Positions 56,691-63,411 of a DNA stretch of 64,000 nt are shown here, in pieces. Below the pieces are notes generated by a model. The model searched no databases and was not told the origin of the DNA. It saw nothing but the letters and a program-made list of their open reading frames with translations. The number at the start of each line of letters is the position of its first letter. The first letter of the stretch is position 1. The stretch covers positions 310,001 through 374,000 of the forward strand of contig NZ_CANMDB010000002.1 in assembly GCF_947496515.1 (NCBI RefSeq). Reading direction: 5' to 3'. Origin of the DNA: an uncultured Roseobacter sp. (GTDB taxonomy: Bacteria; Pseudomonadota; Alphaproteobacteria; Rhodobacterales; Rhodobacteraceae). A program made the position numbers and the translations under genes.

Positions 56691-57404
56691 ATGGCCATAG
56701 GTGACGTACCAAAGATCCAGGACTTCATGAACAAATGCAAACTGACCGACAAGGTGATCGGATCGCGTAAGATCACGATTTACGATGCCTTTGAAAATGC
56801 GCTGGACGCGCGCCGGGTCGGGAAAAAGACCGATACCGCGAAATGGCTCAAAGCTGCACTGACCGAGATCGACGGCCTCGATATCTTTGATGACAAGCAG
56901 ATGGCCGCCTTCACCAAAGCCGCCCAGGCTTTCCTGAAGAAGAACGGGTATTTTGGCTATGGTGCCGCGTTCAAGAAACGCGCGGGCGATCTGAAGAAGC
57001 TGACCAGCATCTTCAAGAAGAGCGGCGGTACCGCTGCGCAGCGTGCCAGCCAGAGCCTGCATGCGTCGATGGAACGGTCGGGCGAGATCCCCCGGGGCAT
57101 GAGCTTTGCCGATTTTGAAAGCGAGTTGACGAGTTCCTTCAAGGACATCCCCAAGTTCTCAAATGCGAACGACAAGGCGGTGAATGCGGTCAAATGGCCC
57201 GGCATCATCCGCAACTTCGCTTTGCCCAAGGGATCAGAGAAAGATCTCAAACTGCTTGGCGGGTCAATCATCAAGCATGGCGCGTCCAACAAAAAGACCA
57301 TCGACATGGCCAAAGAGATCCTGGCCGCGGCAAAGAACACCCGCAAGAAGGGCATTGAGCTGGTGCTCGCGGTGGATGACAAGCTCGTTGACGAGATGAT
57401 GTAG
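56691..57404 (+). CDS. Unknown basic, helical protein
   Basis: This 237-residue, Lys-rich cytosolic-looking protein has no signal peptide or membrane segment and a single Cys (residue 16). Most of it should be alpha-helical. Repeated AAFTKAAQAFLKK and GAAFKKRAGDLKKLTSIFKK stretches give basic amphipathic helices. No known family is recognised. It has a good AAAGGA ribosome site and its own downstream terminator. It lies between the polyol operon and the type VI secretion genes, so it could be a stand-alone gene or a secretion cargo. The latter is only a guess. Confidence 0.75.
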   Translation: MAIGDVPKIQDFMNKCKLTDKVIGSRKITIYDAFENALDARRVGKKTDTAKWLKAALTEIDGLDIFDDKQMAAFTKAAQAFLKKNGYFGYGAAFKKRAGDLKKLTSIFKKSGGTAAQRASQSLHASMERSGEIPRGMSFADFESELTSSFKDIPKFSNANDKAVNAVKWPGIIRNFALPKGSEKDLKLLGGSIIKHGASNKKTIDMAKEILAAAKNTRKKGIELVLAVDDKLVDEMM

Positions 57405-57431
57405 TCCGCGACGTTTGATGCGCTCGGTCCG

Positions 57432-57459
57432 AAAGGCCCCGTTTTGTGCGGGGCCTTTT
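57432..57459 (+). terminator. Rho-independent terminator
   Basis: AAAGGCCCC and GGGGCCTTT form a 9-bp stem with a short T-rich loop and end in TTTT. It lies 28 bp after the stop of the basic protein gene and just before the convergent type VI-linked gene, so it may serve both directions. Confidence 0.88.
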
Positions 57460-57480
57460 GCCGTTTGCGGGCGCTTTAGC

Positions 57481-58515
57481 CTAGGAGAATGGGCACAGGC
57501 TGCAGGCATCGAGCGGTTCCATATCCAGCACGATCTGCAACGACGCGCCCAGCCCCAGCATCAGGTTGGCCACCGGCAGGAACCCGATTTGCGGCATGGA
57601 AAAGCCCATGATCGGCGCAAACATCGCCGGTGTGGCCATCGAAGCCCCCAGTTGGACGGAATCGAGCGAGGGCAGCGCATCGAGATCGGCGTGAAGCGCC
57701 AGCGCAGGCATCGGCGGCATGGGAAAGGGCAGCGCCCCCCAGAACCGCATCATGGCGCGGATCGGGGCCAGTCCTGCGCCCGACAGACCAATGTCACCAA
57801 AGGCCAGCTTGATCGTCGCCAGTGCGTTCAGCACGAGCGCCAGCTTGCTCAGCTGTGGGAGTGATATGCCCAACTTCGGGGGCTTGATGCCCGCGAGCCC
57901 CTGCAGCGCGCTCATCATGCCGGGAAAGGAGCCGTTCTCGCCCAGGGTCGGCAGTTGAAAGGTCTCCGTCAGCGAAAAGAGGCTCGGCAGTCCCATCAGG
58001 ATCCGCGCCATATGCAGCTGTGGTCGTGGCAGCGACATGCGGAAGTGATGACCGGGGTATTGAACCGCTGGCATGGTGTAATCCATCGCAAAGGCATCGA
58101 TCCCGAGTGCGCGCAGATCCAACACCAATCGCGCGGCCAGCGCGAAATTCAGCAGTGGACCGAGCTTGAGCGAGGCGAGCCAACCGGTGAGCGGCCAGAC
58201 GTTTGTGACCAGCGTATCGCCCATCTGTTGCAACGACAGCTCCAGCGCTGGCAGATCCATCAAGGGGAATGTCCCTGCGATCAACGCGAGCTGCGGCGCA
58301 ATCTGAAAGAGCCCCCCACTGGGCAGCGACAGCGTCGGCAGGTTCAGATTGCCCAGATAGGCGCTCAGGGCCATGTCGAGCCGGTTCTCGGGCGTGATCG
58401 CGGGAAAGGCCAGGGCAAGCTGCATTTGCAGCGGGACCTGCGGCAGCGCCATGGAAAAGCTCGGCGAGATCCGGGAGGGGATCGTGGCAGCGGGGGTTTT
58501 GCAAAAACAGACCAT
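57481..58515 (-). CDS. Unknown type VI-linked protein with terminal Cys pairs
   Basis: This 344-residue protein is very rich in Leu, Ala, Pro and Met. Hydrophobic stretches are broken by prolines (SAYLGNLNLPTLSLPSGG, LPFPMPPMPALALHADLDALPS). Its only four cysteines are at the ends: Cys3 and Cys5 in MVCFCKTP and Cys338 and Cys341 in DACSLCPFS. They could join both termini around one metal or form disulfides. No known domain is recognised. It is the last gene of the minus-strand secretion operon, 12 bp after the PP2C gene, so it may be cargo, an adaptor or an immunity protein. The role is unknown. Confidence 0.75.
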   Translation of the reverse strand: MVCFCKTPAATIPSRISPSFSMALPQVPLQMQLALAFPAITPENRLDMALSAYLGNLNLPTLSLPSGGLFQIAPQLALIAGTFPLMDLPALELSLQQMGDTLVTNVWPLTGWLASLKLGPLLNFALAARLVLDLRALGIDAFAMDYTMPAVQYPGHHFRMSLPRPQLHMARILMGLPSLFSLTETFQLPTLGENGSFPGMMSALQGLAGIKPPKLGISLPQLSKLALVLNALATIKLAFGDIGLSGAGLAPIRAMMRFWGALPFPMPPMPALALHADLDALPSLDSVQLGASMATPAMFAPIMGFSMPQIGFLPVANLMLGLGASLQIVLDMEPLDACSLCPFS

Positions 58516-58527
58516 GGGTGTCTCCTC

Positions 58528-59253
58528 TCAGACCTCGACCGCGATGACGGAGACATTGTCCGCCCCGCCGCCCGCCAGCGCTTGTTTGATCAGAGTGTTG
58601 GCGAGGCTGTCGATCGGTGTCTCACGCATCAGCCGTTCCAGCCCGAGGTCATCAACGTGGCTCGTCAGCCCGTCCGAGCACAGCAGGAACCGATCCCCTG
58701 CCGTAGCTGCGCCGCGCCGTTTCTCCACGCCCGGGTCGGTGCCGATGCCGATGGCCCGGGTGATCTGGTTGCGCTGCGGATGGCAGGCGGCCTCGGTCCG
58801 GCTGATCTGACCCGCGGCGACCATGGCCTGCACCACGGAATGGTCCTCGCTGATCTGGGCCAGCCTGCCCTGCCGCAGCCGGTAGAGCCGACTGTCCCCG
58901 GCCCAGAGACAGAGGAAATGATCCTCCGCCAACGCCAGAAGGATGATGGTGGTGCCCATAGTGGCGACGCGGTGCCGGGCTGCTTCGTGCCGGATGCGGT
59001 GATGTGCGGCGTGCAGCTCCGCCCGGATCCGGTCCGGCAACGCCGGGGCTGTCAGGTCTGTGGGCAGGCCCGCCAGTGCATCAATCACCGTCTGGCTAGC
59101 CACGTCTCCGCCCGCATAGCCGCCCATCCCGTCCGCCACGGCCCAAAGGCCTAGCTGGGGCAGCGCAAGGATCGCGTCCTCGTTGACGGTTCGGACATGG
59201 CCGATGTGAGTGCGCGCGCTGTAGCGTCGAGTTTTGGTCTTGGCGGTGATCAT
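58528..59253 (-). CDS. pppA: PP2C-type serine/threonine phosphatase of the type VI locus
   Basis: This 241-residue PPM phosphatase has metal motifs GHVRTVNEDAIL, WAVADGMGGYAGGDVAS, LLALAEDHFLCLWAGDSRLYRL, LLCSDGL and GGADNVSVIAVEV. In type VI systems such a phosphatase (PppA) opposes the kinase PpkA and so switches firing off. It is encoded right after tagF. No kinase gene is visible in this window. Confidence 0.9.
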   Translation of the reverse strand: MITAKTKTRRYSARTHIGHVRTVNEDAILALPQLGLWAVADGMGGYAGGDVASQTVIDALAGLPTDLTAPALPDRIRAELHAAHHRIRHEAARHRVATMGTTIILLALAEDHFLCLWAGDSRLYRLRQGRLAQISEDHSVVQAMVAAGQISRTEAACHPQRNQITRAIGIGTDPGVEKRRGAATAGDRFLLCSDGLTSHVDDLGLERLMRETPIDSLANTLIKQALAGGGADNVSVIAVEV

Positions 59254-59254
59254 G

Positions 59255-59845
59255 TCAGATATCCCGGTGCTCGGGGGTGGTGGTGTCGAACAGCGCTGCC
59301 GCTTGCCAGGGGGCTGTGGGCATCTGGGGCAGCTGCATCACGCGCGCGCCGCCCTGCGCCATTGTCGCCCAGATGGAGCCCGCGCTCGAAGGCGCTGCCC
59401 CCAAATGCAGAACCGGAACGGGACGAGGCAGCCGGTCGATCTCCGCCTCCAGCGTGGCCCGTGATACCGTTTCGGCGATCAAATGCAGCGCCACACTCTC
59501 CCAAAGGGCCGCGACCTGATGCAGCGCAAGCTGCGCTGACAGCGGTGGCAGATCGGTCTCTGCCGCGATGCAGAAGGGAAAGAGCCGCCCGACCCGGTCA
59601 TGACTGGGGATCATGATGCCCATCGCCCCCCGCGGGCCGAGCAATCCGGGGGCGAGACTGAATCGCCAGATGGGCGCGGAGAGATAGGCTGCACGCCAGG
59701 TGCCATCATCCTGTTGCGCGCGCTCCAGCGTTCTCAGCATCCAGCCATCCCACGCCGTGGTGAACTCAGCCGATAGCCCTCGCCTCAGGAAATCGCCCGC
59801 CAGCGGGAGCTTGCCGTAATACCCGATGCGCATCACGGTGCTCAC
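59255..59845 (-). CDS. tagF: Type VI secretion-associated protein TagF
   Basis: This 196-residue protein begins with the TagF/ImpM pattern IGYYGKLPLAGDFLRRGL and carries PIWRFSLAPGLLGPRGAMGIMIPSHDRVGR. TagF is a post-translational repressor of type VI secretion in several bacteria. It overlaps the tssM stop by 4 bases and precedes the PP2C gene by 1 bp. Confidence 0.9.
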   Translation of the reverse strand: MSTVMRIGYYGKLPLAGDFLRRGLSAEFTTAWDGWMLRTLERAQQDDGTWRAAYLSAPIWRFSLAPGLLGPRGAMGIMIPSHDRVGRLFPFCIAAETDLPPLSAQLALHQVAALWESVALHLIAETVSRATLEAEIDRLPRPVPVLHLGAAPSSAGSIWATMAQGGARVMQLPQMPTAPWQAAALFDTTTPEHRDI

Positions 59846-62800
59846 AGGGTCGCCGGGCAGCTGAAACTGCCGAGCGCGTCCAGCGTGAAGGGATCGAGCG
59901 ATGATCCCGCGCGCAGCTGAAAGATGGCAATCTGCCCGTCCATGTTGAAGACCACGCGGCTGCGGTCGCTGACGGTCGTACGCCGCAGTTCCGCCGTATC
60001 CAGCAGCCGAAAGAGCGCCCAGGGCCCGTCCCGGCTGAGATCACGCTGCAGCCCTGATTGCGCGGGCGTAAAGCTGATCCGGCTGCGCGCGCCCGGTGTG
60101 CCGGGCCATCGGAGCGCGCTCGCCTGTGGCGGGCCGTGGGCGTAAGTGACGCTTTGCCCGCCGGTTTCCAGCGTGACGCGCGCTACCTCCGGGTCCAGTG
60201 CCGCGGGCGTGATCTCAAAGCCGACATCGGGTAGGCCCGGAGCGGTGAAAAAGCTGTTCTTGATCTCATCGGCACGTTGGAATTGCGCAATCACCTCCGT
60301 TGGCAGGCCGATGTCGATCCCGTTGACGCGCCGCGGCTGCCAAGGGGTCAGAGTGGTATCCACAAAGCGCGCCAGATGCGTGTCAAAGAACGTCTCTATC
60401 AGCCCGGCAGGACCGAAGAGCTGGCCGAAATCCTGCAAGGTCGTATCGGCCTGTGCGGTCGGATCAAAGGGATAGCGGGCCTGTGTGGCGCGCGTGCAGA
60501 CGGGGAGCACCTCGCGTCGCCACGTGGCGTTGACCTCAGCCCGTGCGCCGCCCACGGCAGCCCCGGCAGAGGCTTGCACAACCTGCCTGGCCCAGCGGTC
60601 CATGGGGGCGGGCATGCGCCCGATCTCCGCCTGCAGCCGGGCGGGCGCGCTCTGCGTGCCGTCGAGCAGTGCATCGCTCAGGTTCTGGCCCAGCGACAGC
60701 CGGTTGAGCGCGTCATACACCTCCGCCATCAGCGCGATGATCCGGTCAAGCTCCGCCGGACCTTCGGTGCGGTCGGCAAGGCGCAGCACTGCACTGAACC
60801 GGTCCTCGACGAACTGGCCCGGCGGGGGTGGGCTTTCATCGGGGATCTGCTCCAGCGTCCCGCGCACGGCGTTGAAAAACTCCTCCGCGTCCAGGCTGAG
60901 GCTGCCTGCGAGCTCGTCAATCGCGAATTCCTGCGCCTGTCCCGCGGCGATGCCCGTGATGGCATCGGCGGTGGGCAGGACGGTCAGCCGGGTTTCCTGT
61001 GCCACGCTTTCGAGCAGGTTGCGCAGGGGCGAGACCGGCCCCGAGAGGATGTTGATCACATCCGTTGCCTGCGCGAGGCTGGTCATGGGCAGAATGTCGA
61101 TGTCGGCCAGAAGCGCGTCGTAGCGGTTCACATAGTCGGTCTCATAAAGCGCCAGCACATCGCGGCTGACCAGCGCGCGGGCCTCGGGCGTGTCGGGGGT
61201 TTGACCCGCGGCCCCAAGGATCTGGCTGTCGCGCACGGCCCGGTCGCCTGCCAGCAGCACTTGCGGCAAGAAGACATCGTAGAACGCGCGCCGGCTGTAG
61301 ATCCCCTCGATCCCGCTGCTCAGTGGCCTGCCCGAGGGCCGGATCAGCACCCGGGATGCTGCAGGCCCGCCCGCTTCGGTGATCCGGAAAGGCGGCAGCG
61401 CCTGCGCCGCATCGGACGTTACGATGCTGCGGTAGATCCGCTCCGATATGGGGGTCTCGGACAGAACGGCCTGCGCGCGTTCGACCAGACGCCCGTCAAG
61501 GGCGATCTGCTGCATGGGCTGGCCAAGCAGGGCATCCAGATGACCTGCGAGATCCGCTTGCAACGCGGGCTGACCGACATGGAGCGTGGCCCAGTCCTCG
61601 GCCATCCAACGGGTGACATGCGCGCTGTCCATGGGCACTTGCAGCCCCAGCATCATATAGGTTTTGAGCGCCTCAAAAAGCAGATCACTATCGGTGAGGT
61701 TCGCGCGGATCTCTTCCTCCACCCGGAGCACCAGCCTCGGCAACATCAGGGTGTTGAGCGCTGCACGGTAGCTTTGCGCTGTTTCCGTGCCGATCACATC
61801 GCCCTGATAGAGCCCGTATTGCAGCGCGCGGGGCGGCTCAGCGTCAGTGGCGGCCGGGTTGCCGGGCAGATCGCGCAGGATGTTGAGCGCCTGCGCCACG
61901 TCCGACAAGTCGGTATCAGCGATCTCGCGTTGTGGGATCTCGGCGGTCATGAGCTGAAAGCGTGCGATCTCGCGGCCCGTCTCGGCCAGCAGGGTCCGGT
62001 TGCCCGCAAAGCTGTTCACCAGCACCCCGGCCATCAGCCCGAAGGCGAGCACTCCGCTCGCCAAGGCACCGCGCGTGGCCCAGCGGGTACGCCGCCGCGC
62101 CGCGTCGTTCCGCGACACCAACCCAGCCTCGCCAAAGATCACGTCTGTCATGAGCCGCGTCAGGAAAAAGCTCCGCCCCTGCCCCTGTCCGGTGCCGATG
62201 GCCTGCCGCGCGATGCCGAAACTCTCCGCCATGCCCGCCATCAGCCGGTCAACGGGCATGCCTTCCTGAGTGCCGGAGGTGAAATAGACACCACGCAGCA
62301 TCAGCGGATCGTGATAGCGGCTGTGCTGAAAGATCTCCTCCAGAAAGCGCTGAGCCACATCCCGCAGGCTGGCCATCTGGGCAGGGAAGCCCGCGATCAG
62401 CGCGCGGCGCTGGAAATCGGTCTCGGTCTGCATCCGTTCAAGGCTGTGGTCGCTCAGCCGGGTGATCAGCGCGTCGAATTCGCCGGGGAAGGCATCGGTG
62501 GTTGCGTCCCGCGGCAGGGTGACGCCCCAGACCTGTTCACGCTCTCGGCTGCCGAGACGGTCAAAGAATTCCTGAAACCCGGCCACCAGATCCGCTTTGG
62601 TCAGCATCACGTAAACGGGGAACTGCACCCCCAGCCGCGTCCGCAATTCCTGCAGGCGCAGCCGGATGGCGCGGGCGTGCTCGGCGCATTCCGCCTCGTC
62701 CATCCGGGCCAGATCGGACAGGCTGATCGCCACCAGCGCACCATTGATGGGCTGGCGGCTGCGGGTTTTCCTGAGCATGTCGAGAAAGCCTGTCCAGGCG

Positions 62801-63411
62801 CGTGCGTCCGCCTCCGCGTTGCTGTCCTGGGTGGTGTAGCGCCCCGCGGTGTCCAGCAGCACGGCCCCCTCGGTGAACCACCATTCGCAGTTGCGCGTCC
62901 CGCCGATACCGGAGACGGAGGCCGCACCCAAGCTGTCGGCCAGCGGAAACTGCAGACCGGAATTTGCGATGGCGGTGGTCTTGCCAGCGCCCGGCGGGCC
63001 GATCATGACGTACCACGGCAGCTGGTAGAGGTAGGCCTTGCCGAACCAGCCCCCCTTTGTGCTCTTGCGCAGTGTCTTCAGCGCCGTCCGGAGCCTTGTG
63101 CCGATCTCGCCCAGTTCGGCCTCAATCGCGCTGTCCTCGATGCGTGCGTCTTCGGCTTCCTGTGCCATGGCCCGGGTGATCTGGCTTTCCCGGGTGCGGC
63201 GGGTCAGCAGGATGATGAGCACCGCGATGGTCGCCGCGGCAAAGATCGCCAGGGTCGCGGCGAGCCGGTCGAGCACCGTGTCGAAGGGTCTGATGCCAGC
63301 GATCTCCAGCAGCGGGCCAAGGTACCACAGCGGCAGCAGCACCAGCGTGGCCGTCAGCGCCACGATGCCGATGGGTGAAAGAAGGACGTTCCAGAAGAAA
63401 TGGCGGATCAT
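59842..63411 (-). CDS. tssM: Type VI secretion inner-membrane protein TssM (IcmF)
   Basis: This 1,189-residue protein has two N-terminal membrane helices and a third near residue 450. Between them is a cytosolic GTPase-like domain with Walker A GPPGAGKTT, a switch-like GIGGTRNCEWWFTEGAVLLDTAGRY and TKADL. A long periplasmic part follows with the IcmF-type C-terminal domain. It forms the membrane complex with TssL and TssJ. The Walker motif is intact. It begins 3 bp after the OmpA-type gene and overlaps tagF by 4 bases. Confidence 0.95.
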   Translation of the reverse strand: MIRHFFWNVLLSPIGIVALTATLVLLPLWYLGPLLEIAGIRPFDTVLDRLAATLAIFAAATIAVLIILLTRRTRESQITRAMAQEAEDARIEDSAIEAELGEIGTRLRTALKTLRKSTKGGWFGKAYLYQLPWYVMIGPPGAGKTTAIANSGLQFPLADSLGAASVSGIGGTRNCEWWFTEGAVLLDTAGRYTTQDSNAEADARAWTGFLDMLRKTRSRQPINGALVAISLSDLARMDEAECAEHARAIRLRLQELRTRLGVQFPVYVMLTKADLVAGFQEFFDRLGSREREQVWGVTLPRDATTDAFPGEFDALITRLSDHSLERMQTETDFQRRALIAGFPAQMASLRDVAQRFLEEIFQHSRYHDPLMLRGVYFTSGTQEGMPVDRLMAGMAESFGIARQAIGTGQGQGRSFFLTRLMTDVIFGEAGLVSRNDAARRRTRWATRGALASGVLAFGLMAGVLVNSFAGNRTLLAETGREIARFQLMTAEIPQREIADTDLSDVAQALNILRDLPGNPAATDAEPPRALQYGLYQGDVIGTETAQSYRAALNTLMLPRLVLRVEEEIRANLTDSDLLFEALKTYMMLGLQVPMDSAHVTRWMAEDWATLHVGQPALQADLAGHLDALLGQPMQQIALDGRLVERAQAVLSETPISERIYRSIVTSDAAQALPPFRITEAGGPAASRVLIRPSGRPLSSGIEGIYSRRAFYDVFLPQVLLAGDRAVRDSQILGAAGQTPDTPEARALVSRDVLALYETDYVNRYDALLADIDILPMTSLAQATDVINILSGPVSPLRNLLESVAQETRLTVLPTADAITGIAAGQAQEFAIDELAGSLSLDAEEFFNAVRGTLEQIPDESPPPPGQFVEDRFSAVLRLADRTEGPAELDRIIALMAEVYDALNRLSLGQNLSDALLDGTQSAPARLQAEIGRMPAPMDRWARQVVQASAGAAVGGARAEVNATWRREVLPVCTRATQARYPFDPTAQADTTLQDFGQLFGPAGLIETFFDTHLARFVDTTLTPWQPRRVNGIDIGLPTEVIAQFQRADEIKNSFFTAPGLPDVGFEITPAALDPEVARVTLETGGQSVTYAHGPPQASALRWPGTPGARSRISFTPAQSGLQRDLSRDGPWALFRLLDTAELRRTTVSDRSRVVFNMDGQIAIFQLRAGSSLDPFTLDALGSFSCPATL

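What the first reader, a model, noticed from the sequence alone, without database searches (positions are those of the whole stretch)
57481..58515. Type VI-linked protein with C-x-C at one end and C-x2-C at the other
The protein is 344 residues, low in charge and rich in Leu, Pro and Met. Its only cysteines are two at each terminus. A metal site or disulfides joining both ends would be an unusual closure. As the last gene of the secretion operon it may be an effector, adaptor or immunity factor of a new kind.
Basis: partly seen in the sequence, partly recalled or inferred. Interest (0 to 1): 0.55.

Follow-up and report, generated by a model that had tools for sequence, protein, structure and literature searches.

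The report
Type VI protein with cysteine-paired ends
An undescribed bacterial protein, carried as an optional extra gene of a type VI secretion 'harpoon', keeps two pairs of cysteines at its two ends while most of its sequence drifts, which suggests a metal- or redox-controlled clasp on something that the harpoon carries or loads.

Summary
ORF 57481-58515(-) encodes 344 residues with cysteines only at 3, 5, 338 and 341. It ends a tssM-tagF-pppA operon and matches no curated family searched. Twenty loci (this one included) carry it, 19 of them in genomes of the window's own family. Across 19 aligned proteins (25-82% identity to the query) C5 and C341 are invariant, C3 and C338 kept in 18; mean column conservation is 0.50. 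All 15 carriers among 390 order genomes have TssM (112 of 390 do); 97 TssM genomes lack it. Fourteen of 20 copies lie 3-30 nt downstream of a T6SS gene on the same strand: pppA (8), ppkA (2) or PAAR (4, each the only PAAR found in its genome). Five have none of the queried T6SS genes beside them. Two sister clusters lack it at a tight site, so it is optional. No recurring immunity-like neighbour was found. Best reading: accessory spike-linked cargo (or cargo adaptor) whose ends are clasped by a Cys4 zinc site or disulfides. T6SS link and cysteine conservation are shown; secretion, clasp and activity are inferred. AlphaFold2 failed (pLDDT 30).

The parts
57481..58515 (-). gene X: 344-aa protein, Leu/Ala/Pro/Met-rich, Cys only at 3, 5, 338, 341
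58501..58509 (-). codons of the N-terminal C3-x-C5 pair
   Evidence: C3 18 of 19, C5 19 of 19 in A2
57493..57504 (-). codons of the C-terminal C338-x2-C341 pair
   Evidence: C338 18 of 19, C341 19 of 19 in A2
57877..58035 (-). internal repeat unit a, residues 161-213
   Evidence: profile-profile match to unit b, probability 87.6, score 29.5; best of 200 column-shuffled controls 15.2
57721..57876 (-). internal repeat unit b, residues 214-265
58522..58526 (-). AGGAG, probable ribosome-binding site of X
   Evidence: seen in the sequence
58528..59253 (-). pppA-like PP2C phosphatase, 12 nt upstream of X
   Evidence: Pfam PP2C_2 3.7e-14 (over its cut-off), NCBIfam Stp1_PP2C 2.7e-60 (under its cut-off)
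59255..59845 (-). tagF
   Evidence: Pfam TagF_N 3e-34
59842..63411 (-). tssM (icmF)
   Evidence: TIGR03348, 1166 bits
57432..57458 (.). 10-bp hairpin between X and the convergent gene; possible shared terminator
   Evidence: minimum free energy -21.9 kcal/mol, z -3.38 for 57425-57470; not listed by the pattern scan

Best explanation
X is an accessory, optional cargo of one type VI secretion subtype in the Rhodobacteraceae/Roseobacteraceae group, loaded at or near the VgrG-PAAR spike. It is a hydrophobic, low-charge protein with at least one internal repeat of about 52 residues, probably helical (inferred from the sequence). Its two ends are brought together by a conserved four-cysteine site (C-x-C plus C-x2-C). 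In the reducing donor cytoplasm the four thiols would most likely hold one zinc and keep the chain closed and soluble; in an oxidising compartment (target periplasm or outside) the pairs would oxidise and open or rearrange the hydrophobic body. Shown here: the T6SS association, the optional presence, the cysteine conservation, the repeat. Inferred: secretion, spike loading, contact between the ends, zinc, and any toxic or membrane activity.
For: All 15 carriers among 390 order genomes also carry TssM, whose base rate is 112 of 390 (hypergeometric 3.7e-9, not corrected for kinship). All 19 carrier genomes with handles have TssM and PAAR. The gene immediately upstream on the same strand is a T6SS gene in 14 of 20 loci: pppA in 8 (gap 3-26 nt), ppkA in 2 (20 nt), PAAR in 4 (11-30 nt); in those four genomes tssM is on another contig or far away, and that PAAR is the only one found. 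An empty site favours cargo over machine part: two genomes of the same genus (G481, G504) have pppA next to ppkA with an 8 or 58 nt gap where G427 and G342 hold X. Four near-invariant terminal cysteines in proteins as little as 25% identical to the query. Internal repeat. [quoted passage not shown] changing either cysteine affected prey lysis, and C148S was not secreted (PMC12302283, abstract). Incoming effectors Ssp2 and Ssp4 need the target cell's DsbA (PMC5792426, passages).
Against: No secretion data. No recurring immunity or partner gene beside X. No catalytic signature and no family match. In 10 of 20 loci the neighbouring T6SS genes are those of the kinase/phosphatase pathway (pppA, ppkA), not the spike, and 5 of 20 have no queried T6SS gene beside them. 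Two of 19 proteins deviate at one cysteine position each, so a strict Cys4 site is not universal. Nineteen other query columns are kept as well as the cysteines, so conservation alone does not single out the ends. Disulfides and zinc are not told apart by any result here. AlphaFold2 gave no usable model (pLDDT 30.3).
Confidence: 0.45

Rival explanations
1. X is not delivered but is a loading adaptor or chaperone for spike cargo: its Met/Leu-rich helices would cover a hydrophobic stretch of a PAAR- or VgrG-linked effector, and the cysteine site would regulate release.
For: PAAR-X pairs with 11-30 nt gaps; one X gene found per genome; no recurring immunity-like neighbour; hydrophobic (GRAVY 0.15 to 0.76).
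Against: No DUF4123, DUF1795 or DUF2169 or other Pfam match (these adaptor domains are recalled); in the four PAAR loci no gene but PAAR and X recurs, apart from the near-identical pair G293/G528; absent from sister clusters.
Confidence: 0.25
2. X is a cytosolic regulator of the threonine-phosphorylation pathway (PpkA/PppA/TagF), with the cysteine site as a redox or zinc sensor.
For: Immediately downstream of pppA in 8 and of ppkA in 2 of 20 loci.
Against: In G239, G293, G425 and G528 it sits with PAAR away from tssM; in G425 pppA and ppkA are adjacent without it. Sister clusters keep pppA, tagF and ppkA without X.
Confidence: 0.15
3. X is a metal carrier exported by the T6SS for metal uptake or delivery, binding zinc or copper through its Cys pairs and methionines.
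For: C-x-C and C-x2-C thiols; Met 4.7-9.5% in 19 proteins; no recurring immunity-like neighbour.
Against: The methionines are not positionally conserved: only M255 is among the columns kept in 18 or more of 19.
Confidence: 0.08
4. X acts in eukaryotic cells, the terminal cysteines being S-acylated by host enzymes (M-x-C-x-C at the start resembles palmitoylated N-termini; resemblance recalled, not tested).
For: The protein starts M-[PVTA]-C-x-C in 16 of 19; no recurring immunity-like neighbour.
Against: Does not explain the C-x2-C at the other end; nothing else points to a eukaryotic target; a literature search listed no such T6SS case by title or abstract start among the 6 of 21 papers shown.
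Confidence: 0.04

Closest known systems
Tse1, P. aeruginosa H1-T6SS amidase effector (PMC12302283, abstract)
   Same: T6SS protein with cysteines near both ends that tie the N- and C-terminal regions; one of them is needed for secretion
   Different: Tse1 has one C7-C148 pair; X has two pairs and no Pfam match of any kind
Hsp33 redox-switched zinc centre (PMC8282892, passage)
   Same: four conserved cysteines in CXC and CXXC motifs; in Hsp33 these hold zinc, and oxidation releases it, forms two disulfides and unfolds part of the protein, exposing hydrophobic regions
   Different: in X the motifs lie 333 positions apart at opposite ends; no Hsp33 match in Pfam; zinc untested; the same passage says that Hsp33 needs unfolding conditions besides oxidation
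T6SS orphan islands with spike genes (PMC13098142, passages)
   Same: X directly follows a PAAR gene away from the main cluster in four genomes
   Different: the islands are said often to hold effector-immunity pairs; X has no recognisable toxin domain and no recurring partner; in 10 loci X is in the main cluster after pppA or ppkA
Tap/Tec/Eag spike adaptors (DUF4123, DUF2169, DUF1795; recalled)
   Same: encoded with spike genes, no immunity partner (recalled)
   Different: none of these domains is found in X or the A1 members

Membership tests
T6SS effector | encoded with T6SS genes | tested here: met
   14 of 20 immediately downstream of pppA, ppkA or PAAR, 1 more about 8 kb from tssM, 5 with none of the queried T6SS genes in the flanks held; 15 of 15 order-sample carriers have TssM
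T6SS effector | cognate immunity gene next door (antibacterial type) | tested here: not met
   no recurring candidate among ORFs of 40 aa or more within 3 kb of X in 20 loci; a partner too diverged for BLAST would be missed
T6SS effector | toxin or delivery-marker domain | tested here: not met
   X: no Pfam family at E up to 10. Ten A1 members in Pfam: two families, one member each, E 0.21 and 0.26. 19 A2 members: none in NCBIfam, one PHROG in one member at E 0.028
T6SS effector | T6SS-dependent secretion | not testable with these tools
   needs a secretome of wild type and a tssM deletion
T6SS spike adaptor (Tap/Tec/Eag) | DUF4123, DUF2169 or DUF1795 domain | tested here: not met
T6SS core component | present in every cluster of the type | tested here: not met
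   X in 15 of 112 TssM-positive genomes of the order sample; empty site in sister clusters
Hsp33 | Hsp33 domain | tested here: not met
Hsp33-like Cys4 zinc switch (mechanism, not membership) | one CXC plus one CXXC, conserved | tested here: met
   both canonical in 17 of 19; C5 and C341 in 19 of 19
Hsp33-like Cys4 zinc switch (mechanism, not membership) | zinc bound when reduced, two disulfides when oxidised | not testable with these tools
   needs metal analysis and thiol mapping
Terminal clasp | N- and C-terminal cysteines close in space | tested here: inconclusive
   AlphaFold2 pLDDT 30.3, pTM 0.21 on a 3-sequence alignment

The most novel reading that the evidence does not exclude
X is the first of a family of T6SS cargoes latched by a zinc redox switch divided between the two ends of the chain: C-x-C and C-x2-C jointly hold zinc in the donor cytoplasm, hiding a repeat-built hydrophobic body; oxidation on arrival releases zinc, makes one disulfide at each end and springs the body open into a membrane. 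That would be an Hsp33-type trigger reinvented as a safety catch, and would explain why no immunity gene is seen: the protein would be harmless in any reducing cytoplasm.
Probability: 0.17. Interest if true: 0.8.

Novelty: new variant of a known kind. Interest (0 to 1): 0.52.

Why it matters
T6SS cargo is usually found by known toxin or marker domains or by immunity partners (general knowledge); this family shows none of these and stands out only by context and by its paired cysteine ends. If the clasp is real it gives a directly testable way in which a cargo could stay inert at home without an immunity protein, and it adds a case to the view, from Tse1 (PMC12302283) and DsbA-dependent effectors (PMC5792426), that thiol chemistry controls T6SS loading and activation.

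Tried and rejected
Family searches: Pfam for X and for 10 A1 members, NCBIfam and PHROGs for 19 A2 members gave nothing useful; PDB sequences searched with A1 gave three matches at E 0.51 to 1.2. PADLOC and the phage and E. coli record collections were not searched. tblastn against plasmids found nothing with two family members; three scans of viral contigs found no relative. A class sample of 385 and a phylum sample of 249 genomes had only the window's own genome as a match.

Hidden members in T6SS-positive genomes without X: A2 on 80 of the 97 such genomes gave one match, E 0.077 with a stop inside, disregarded. The other 17 of the 97, and the 278 TssM-negative genomes, had only the A1 search, which scored four candidates at most in each genome listed, so a missed copy there is possible. 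A scan for the CxC/CxxC architecture (ORFs of 150-700 aa) in all loci then held found only members of this family.

Structure: AlphaFold2 on the window protein aligned with L002 and L003 gave pLDDT 30.3. The other homologues come from a tool outside the stated list for folding, so I did not submit them, and I ran no fold search on so poor a model.

Immunity factor: rejected, no recurring partner. Core component: rejected by the empty site and the 97 TssM genomes without X. The gene at 56691-57404 as a fixed partner: found in 2 of 26 genomes searched, in the second on a different contig from X; beside X only in the window and in L003 among 20 loci. A frame of about 520 aa lies 0.7-1.1 kb from X in L003, L038 and L040, 3 of 20, and was not followed.

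Tree caveat: the TssM tree used the 19 carriers but only 30 of the 97 non-carriers, chosen by me mostly from the top TssM scores plus some low ones, so the seven-member branch without non-carriers may contain some that I did not sample.

Full report
What is there. The ORF at 57481-58515(-) encodes a 344-residue protein, here called X. It has cysteines only at 3, 5, 338 and 341, 19.2% Leu, 10.8% Pro, 6.7% Met and 9% charged residues. It is the last gene of tssM (59842-63411), tagF (59255-59845), pppA (58528-59253), X; tssM and tagF overlap by 4 nt, and the next gaps are 1 and 12 nt. Further upstream in the genome, on the same strand, are a PAAR gene, an FHA gene, VgrG, sheath, ClpV-like ATPase, TssF, Hcp, an ImpA_N protein and a kinase. 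A 10-bp hairpin (57432-57458) lies between X and a convergent gene; a simple pattern scan did not list it.

Homologues. The two nearest named records are uncultured Tateyamaria, 82% and 81% identical. A single-sequence search found X in 8 of 295 genomes of the same family, own genome included; a profile found 15 of 390 in the order, own included, and only the own genome among 385 of the class and 249 of the phylum. One X gene was found per genome. In the order sample nine other genomes of the window's own genus lack X, although two of them have a TssM. No curated family covers the proteins.

The cysteines are conserved. Alignment A2 has 19 proteins (G313 was left out as near-identical to G571), with 25-82% identity to X. 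C5 and C341 are present in 19 of 19; C3 and C338 in 18 of 19. The two exceptions are N-Y-C in the G197 protein and C-x5-C in the G239 protein; both pairs are canonical in 17 of 19. Mean column conservation is 0.50; 23 query columns are kept in at least 18 of 19, and the four cysteines are among them. Position 140 is Cys in 9 and Asp in 10 of 19, so one subgroup has an extra internal cysteine.

The T6SS link. TssM is found in 112 of 390 order genomes, and all 15 X carriers of that sample are among them (hypergeometric 3.7e-9; related genomes are not independent, and the X search scored four candidates at most in each genome listed). All 19 carrier genomes with handles have TssM and PAAR. Neighbour by neighbour (queries tssM, tagF, pppA, ppkA, ompA, M15 and PAAR in flanks of about 7-10 kb): in 8 of 20 loci X follows pppA by 3-26 nt on the same strand; in 2 it follows ppkA by 20 nt; in 4 it follows PAAR by 11-30 nt; in 1 (G478) it lies about 8 kb from tssM beyond other T6SS-linked genes; in 5 (G197, G206, G240, G313, G571) none of the queried genes is near. 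In the four PAAR loci (G239, G293, G425, G528) tssM is on another contig or far away, and that PAAR is the only one the search found in the genome. Being placed behind three different T6SS genes is hard to explain by anything but a T6SS role.

Optional, not core. Of 112 TssM-positive genomes 97 lack X; 80 of these were searched again with the larger profile, with no acceptable match. In one genus G427 and G342 have X between pppA and ppkA, while G481 and G504 have these genes next to each other (gaps 8 and 58 nt) in otherwise similar clusters; which state is ancestral is not settled. In a TssM tree of 49 rows (19 carriers, 30 of the 97 non-carriers, chosen by me), seven carriers with pppA-X form one branch (SH-aLRT 95) without a sampled non-carrier; elsewhere carriers and non-carriers are mixed. 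A tree of X groups the eight pppA-linked proteins (89/94). This fits a cargo-like gene fixed in one lineage and sporadic in others.

No partner. Among 1098 ORFs of 40 aa or more within 3 kb of X in 20 loci, BLAST clusters shared by three or more loci are tssM, tagF/pppA, PAAR, ppkA, the M15 peptidase, a frame of about 520 aa in L003, L038 and L040 (0.7-1.1 kb from X), and further frames that, by their coordinates, look like alternative frames of these genes (not checked one by one). In the four PAAR loci nothing but PAAR (with a frame overlapping it) recurs, apart from the near-identical pair G293/G528. An immunity protein is therefore not evident; a very diverged one could be missed.

Architecture. 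Profile self-comparison finds a repeat: residues 161-213 match 214-265 (probability 87.6, score 29.5; 0 of 200 column-shuffled controls reached it, best 15.2). The N-terminal 155 residues show no such match. AlphaFold2 with the three sequences allowed gave pLDDT 30.3 and is unusable. So the shape, and whether the ends meet, are open. dN/dS among X, L002 and L003 is 0.06-0.10 (rough), so the protein is under purifying selection.

Mechanism. I favour an accessory cargo riding with the spike, with a four-cysteine site clasping the ends (confidence 0.45). Cysteine pairs at both ends, kept together, are what a joint site would leave, though two separate sites would leave the same trace. C-x-C plus C-x2-C is the ligand set described for the Hsp33 zinc switch, where oxidation frees zinc, makes two disulfides and exposes hydrophobic regions, with unfolding conditions needed as well (PMC8282892, passage read). 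In T6SS work, Tse1's C7-C148 disulfide links N- and C-terminal regions and appears redox-active; C148S was not secreted, C7S was, and substituting either affected prey lysis (PMC12302283, abstract read). Ssp2 and Ssp4 need DsbA of the target cell, and Ssp2 lacking its disulfide is stable but non-toxic (PMC5792426, passages read). These are analogies, not homology. An adaptor role (0.25) is the main rival; a regulatory role with PppA/PpkA (0.15) fits 10 of 20 loci but not the PAAR-linked ones.

Literature. Searches for T6SS with Roseobacter (15 of 40 listed), CXXC and PAAR (4 of 4), Rhodobacteraceae and PAAR (4 of 4), disulfide and DsbA (10 of 186), Hsp33 and zinc (3 of 3), and palmitoylation (6 of 21) listed no paper whose title or shown abstract start describes such a protein. 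Beyond listings I read only the abstract or passages of four papers. PMC13098142 (passages) describes orphan islands of spike genes as interchangeable delivery modules, which resembles the setting of the four PAAR-X loci.

Verdict. Real, conserved, T6SS-associated, without a match in the libraries searched; function unproven. New variant of a known kind (T6SS accessory cargo or adaptor), distinguished by paired terminal cysteines.

Noticed in passing
L022:2813-5629 (G000:C2:380812-383628), upstream of the window's T6SS genes: A 938-aa protein joins a TssB/VipA domain (10-158) to a TssC/VipB domain (519-794) in one chain, besides a separate ordinary TssB. A strong VipA match in an open frame over 900 aa occurs in 14 of 17 X carriers searched (of 19) and 12 of 20 other T6SS genomes, up to 1781 aa; VipB was checked only in the own genome. 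One literature search listed two papers, neither about such a fusion by title.
   Followed up: partly
56691-57404 (+): 237-aa Lys-rich protein without a significant family match, convergent with X; a relative lies beside X in L003 (9103-9780) and another elsewhere in G542.
   Followed up: partly
G000:C13:49232-52621: The genome has a second TssM on another contig, and the X search found no second X.
   Followed up: no
X residue 140 and equivalents in A2: An internal Cys in 9 of 19 homologues, Asp in the other 10; splits the family into two subgroups.
   Followed up: no
G565:C26; G044:C12 and C77: The large fused sheath gene appears split across contig ends; in G565 the pieces lie near the two ends of one 80-kb contig, which suggests a circular replicon carrying the T6SS.
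   Followed up: no
L042:12597-14175 and equivalents: An OmpA-domain protein and an M15-type carboxypeptidase-like protein (Pfam) recur near ppkA/pppA: M15 in 14 of 14 and OmpA in 12 of 14 T6SS loci examined for it.
   Followed up: no
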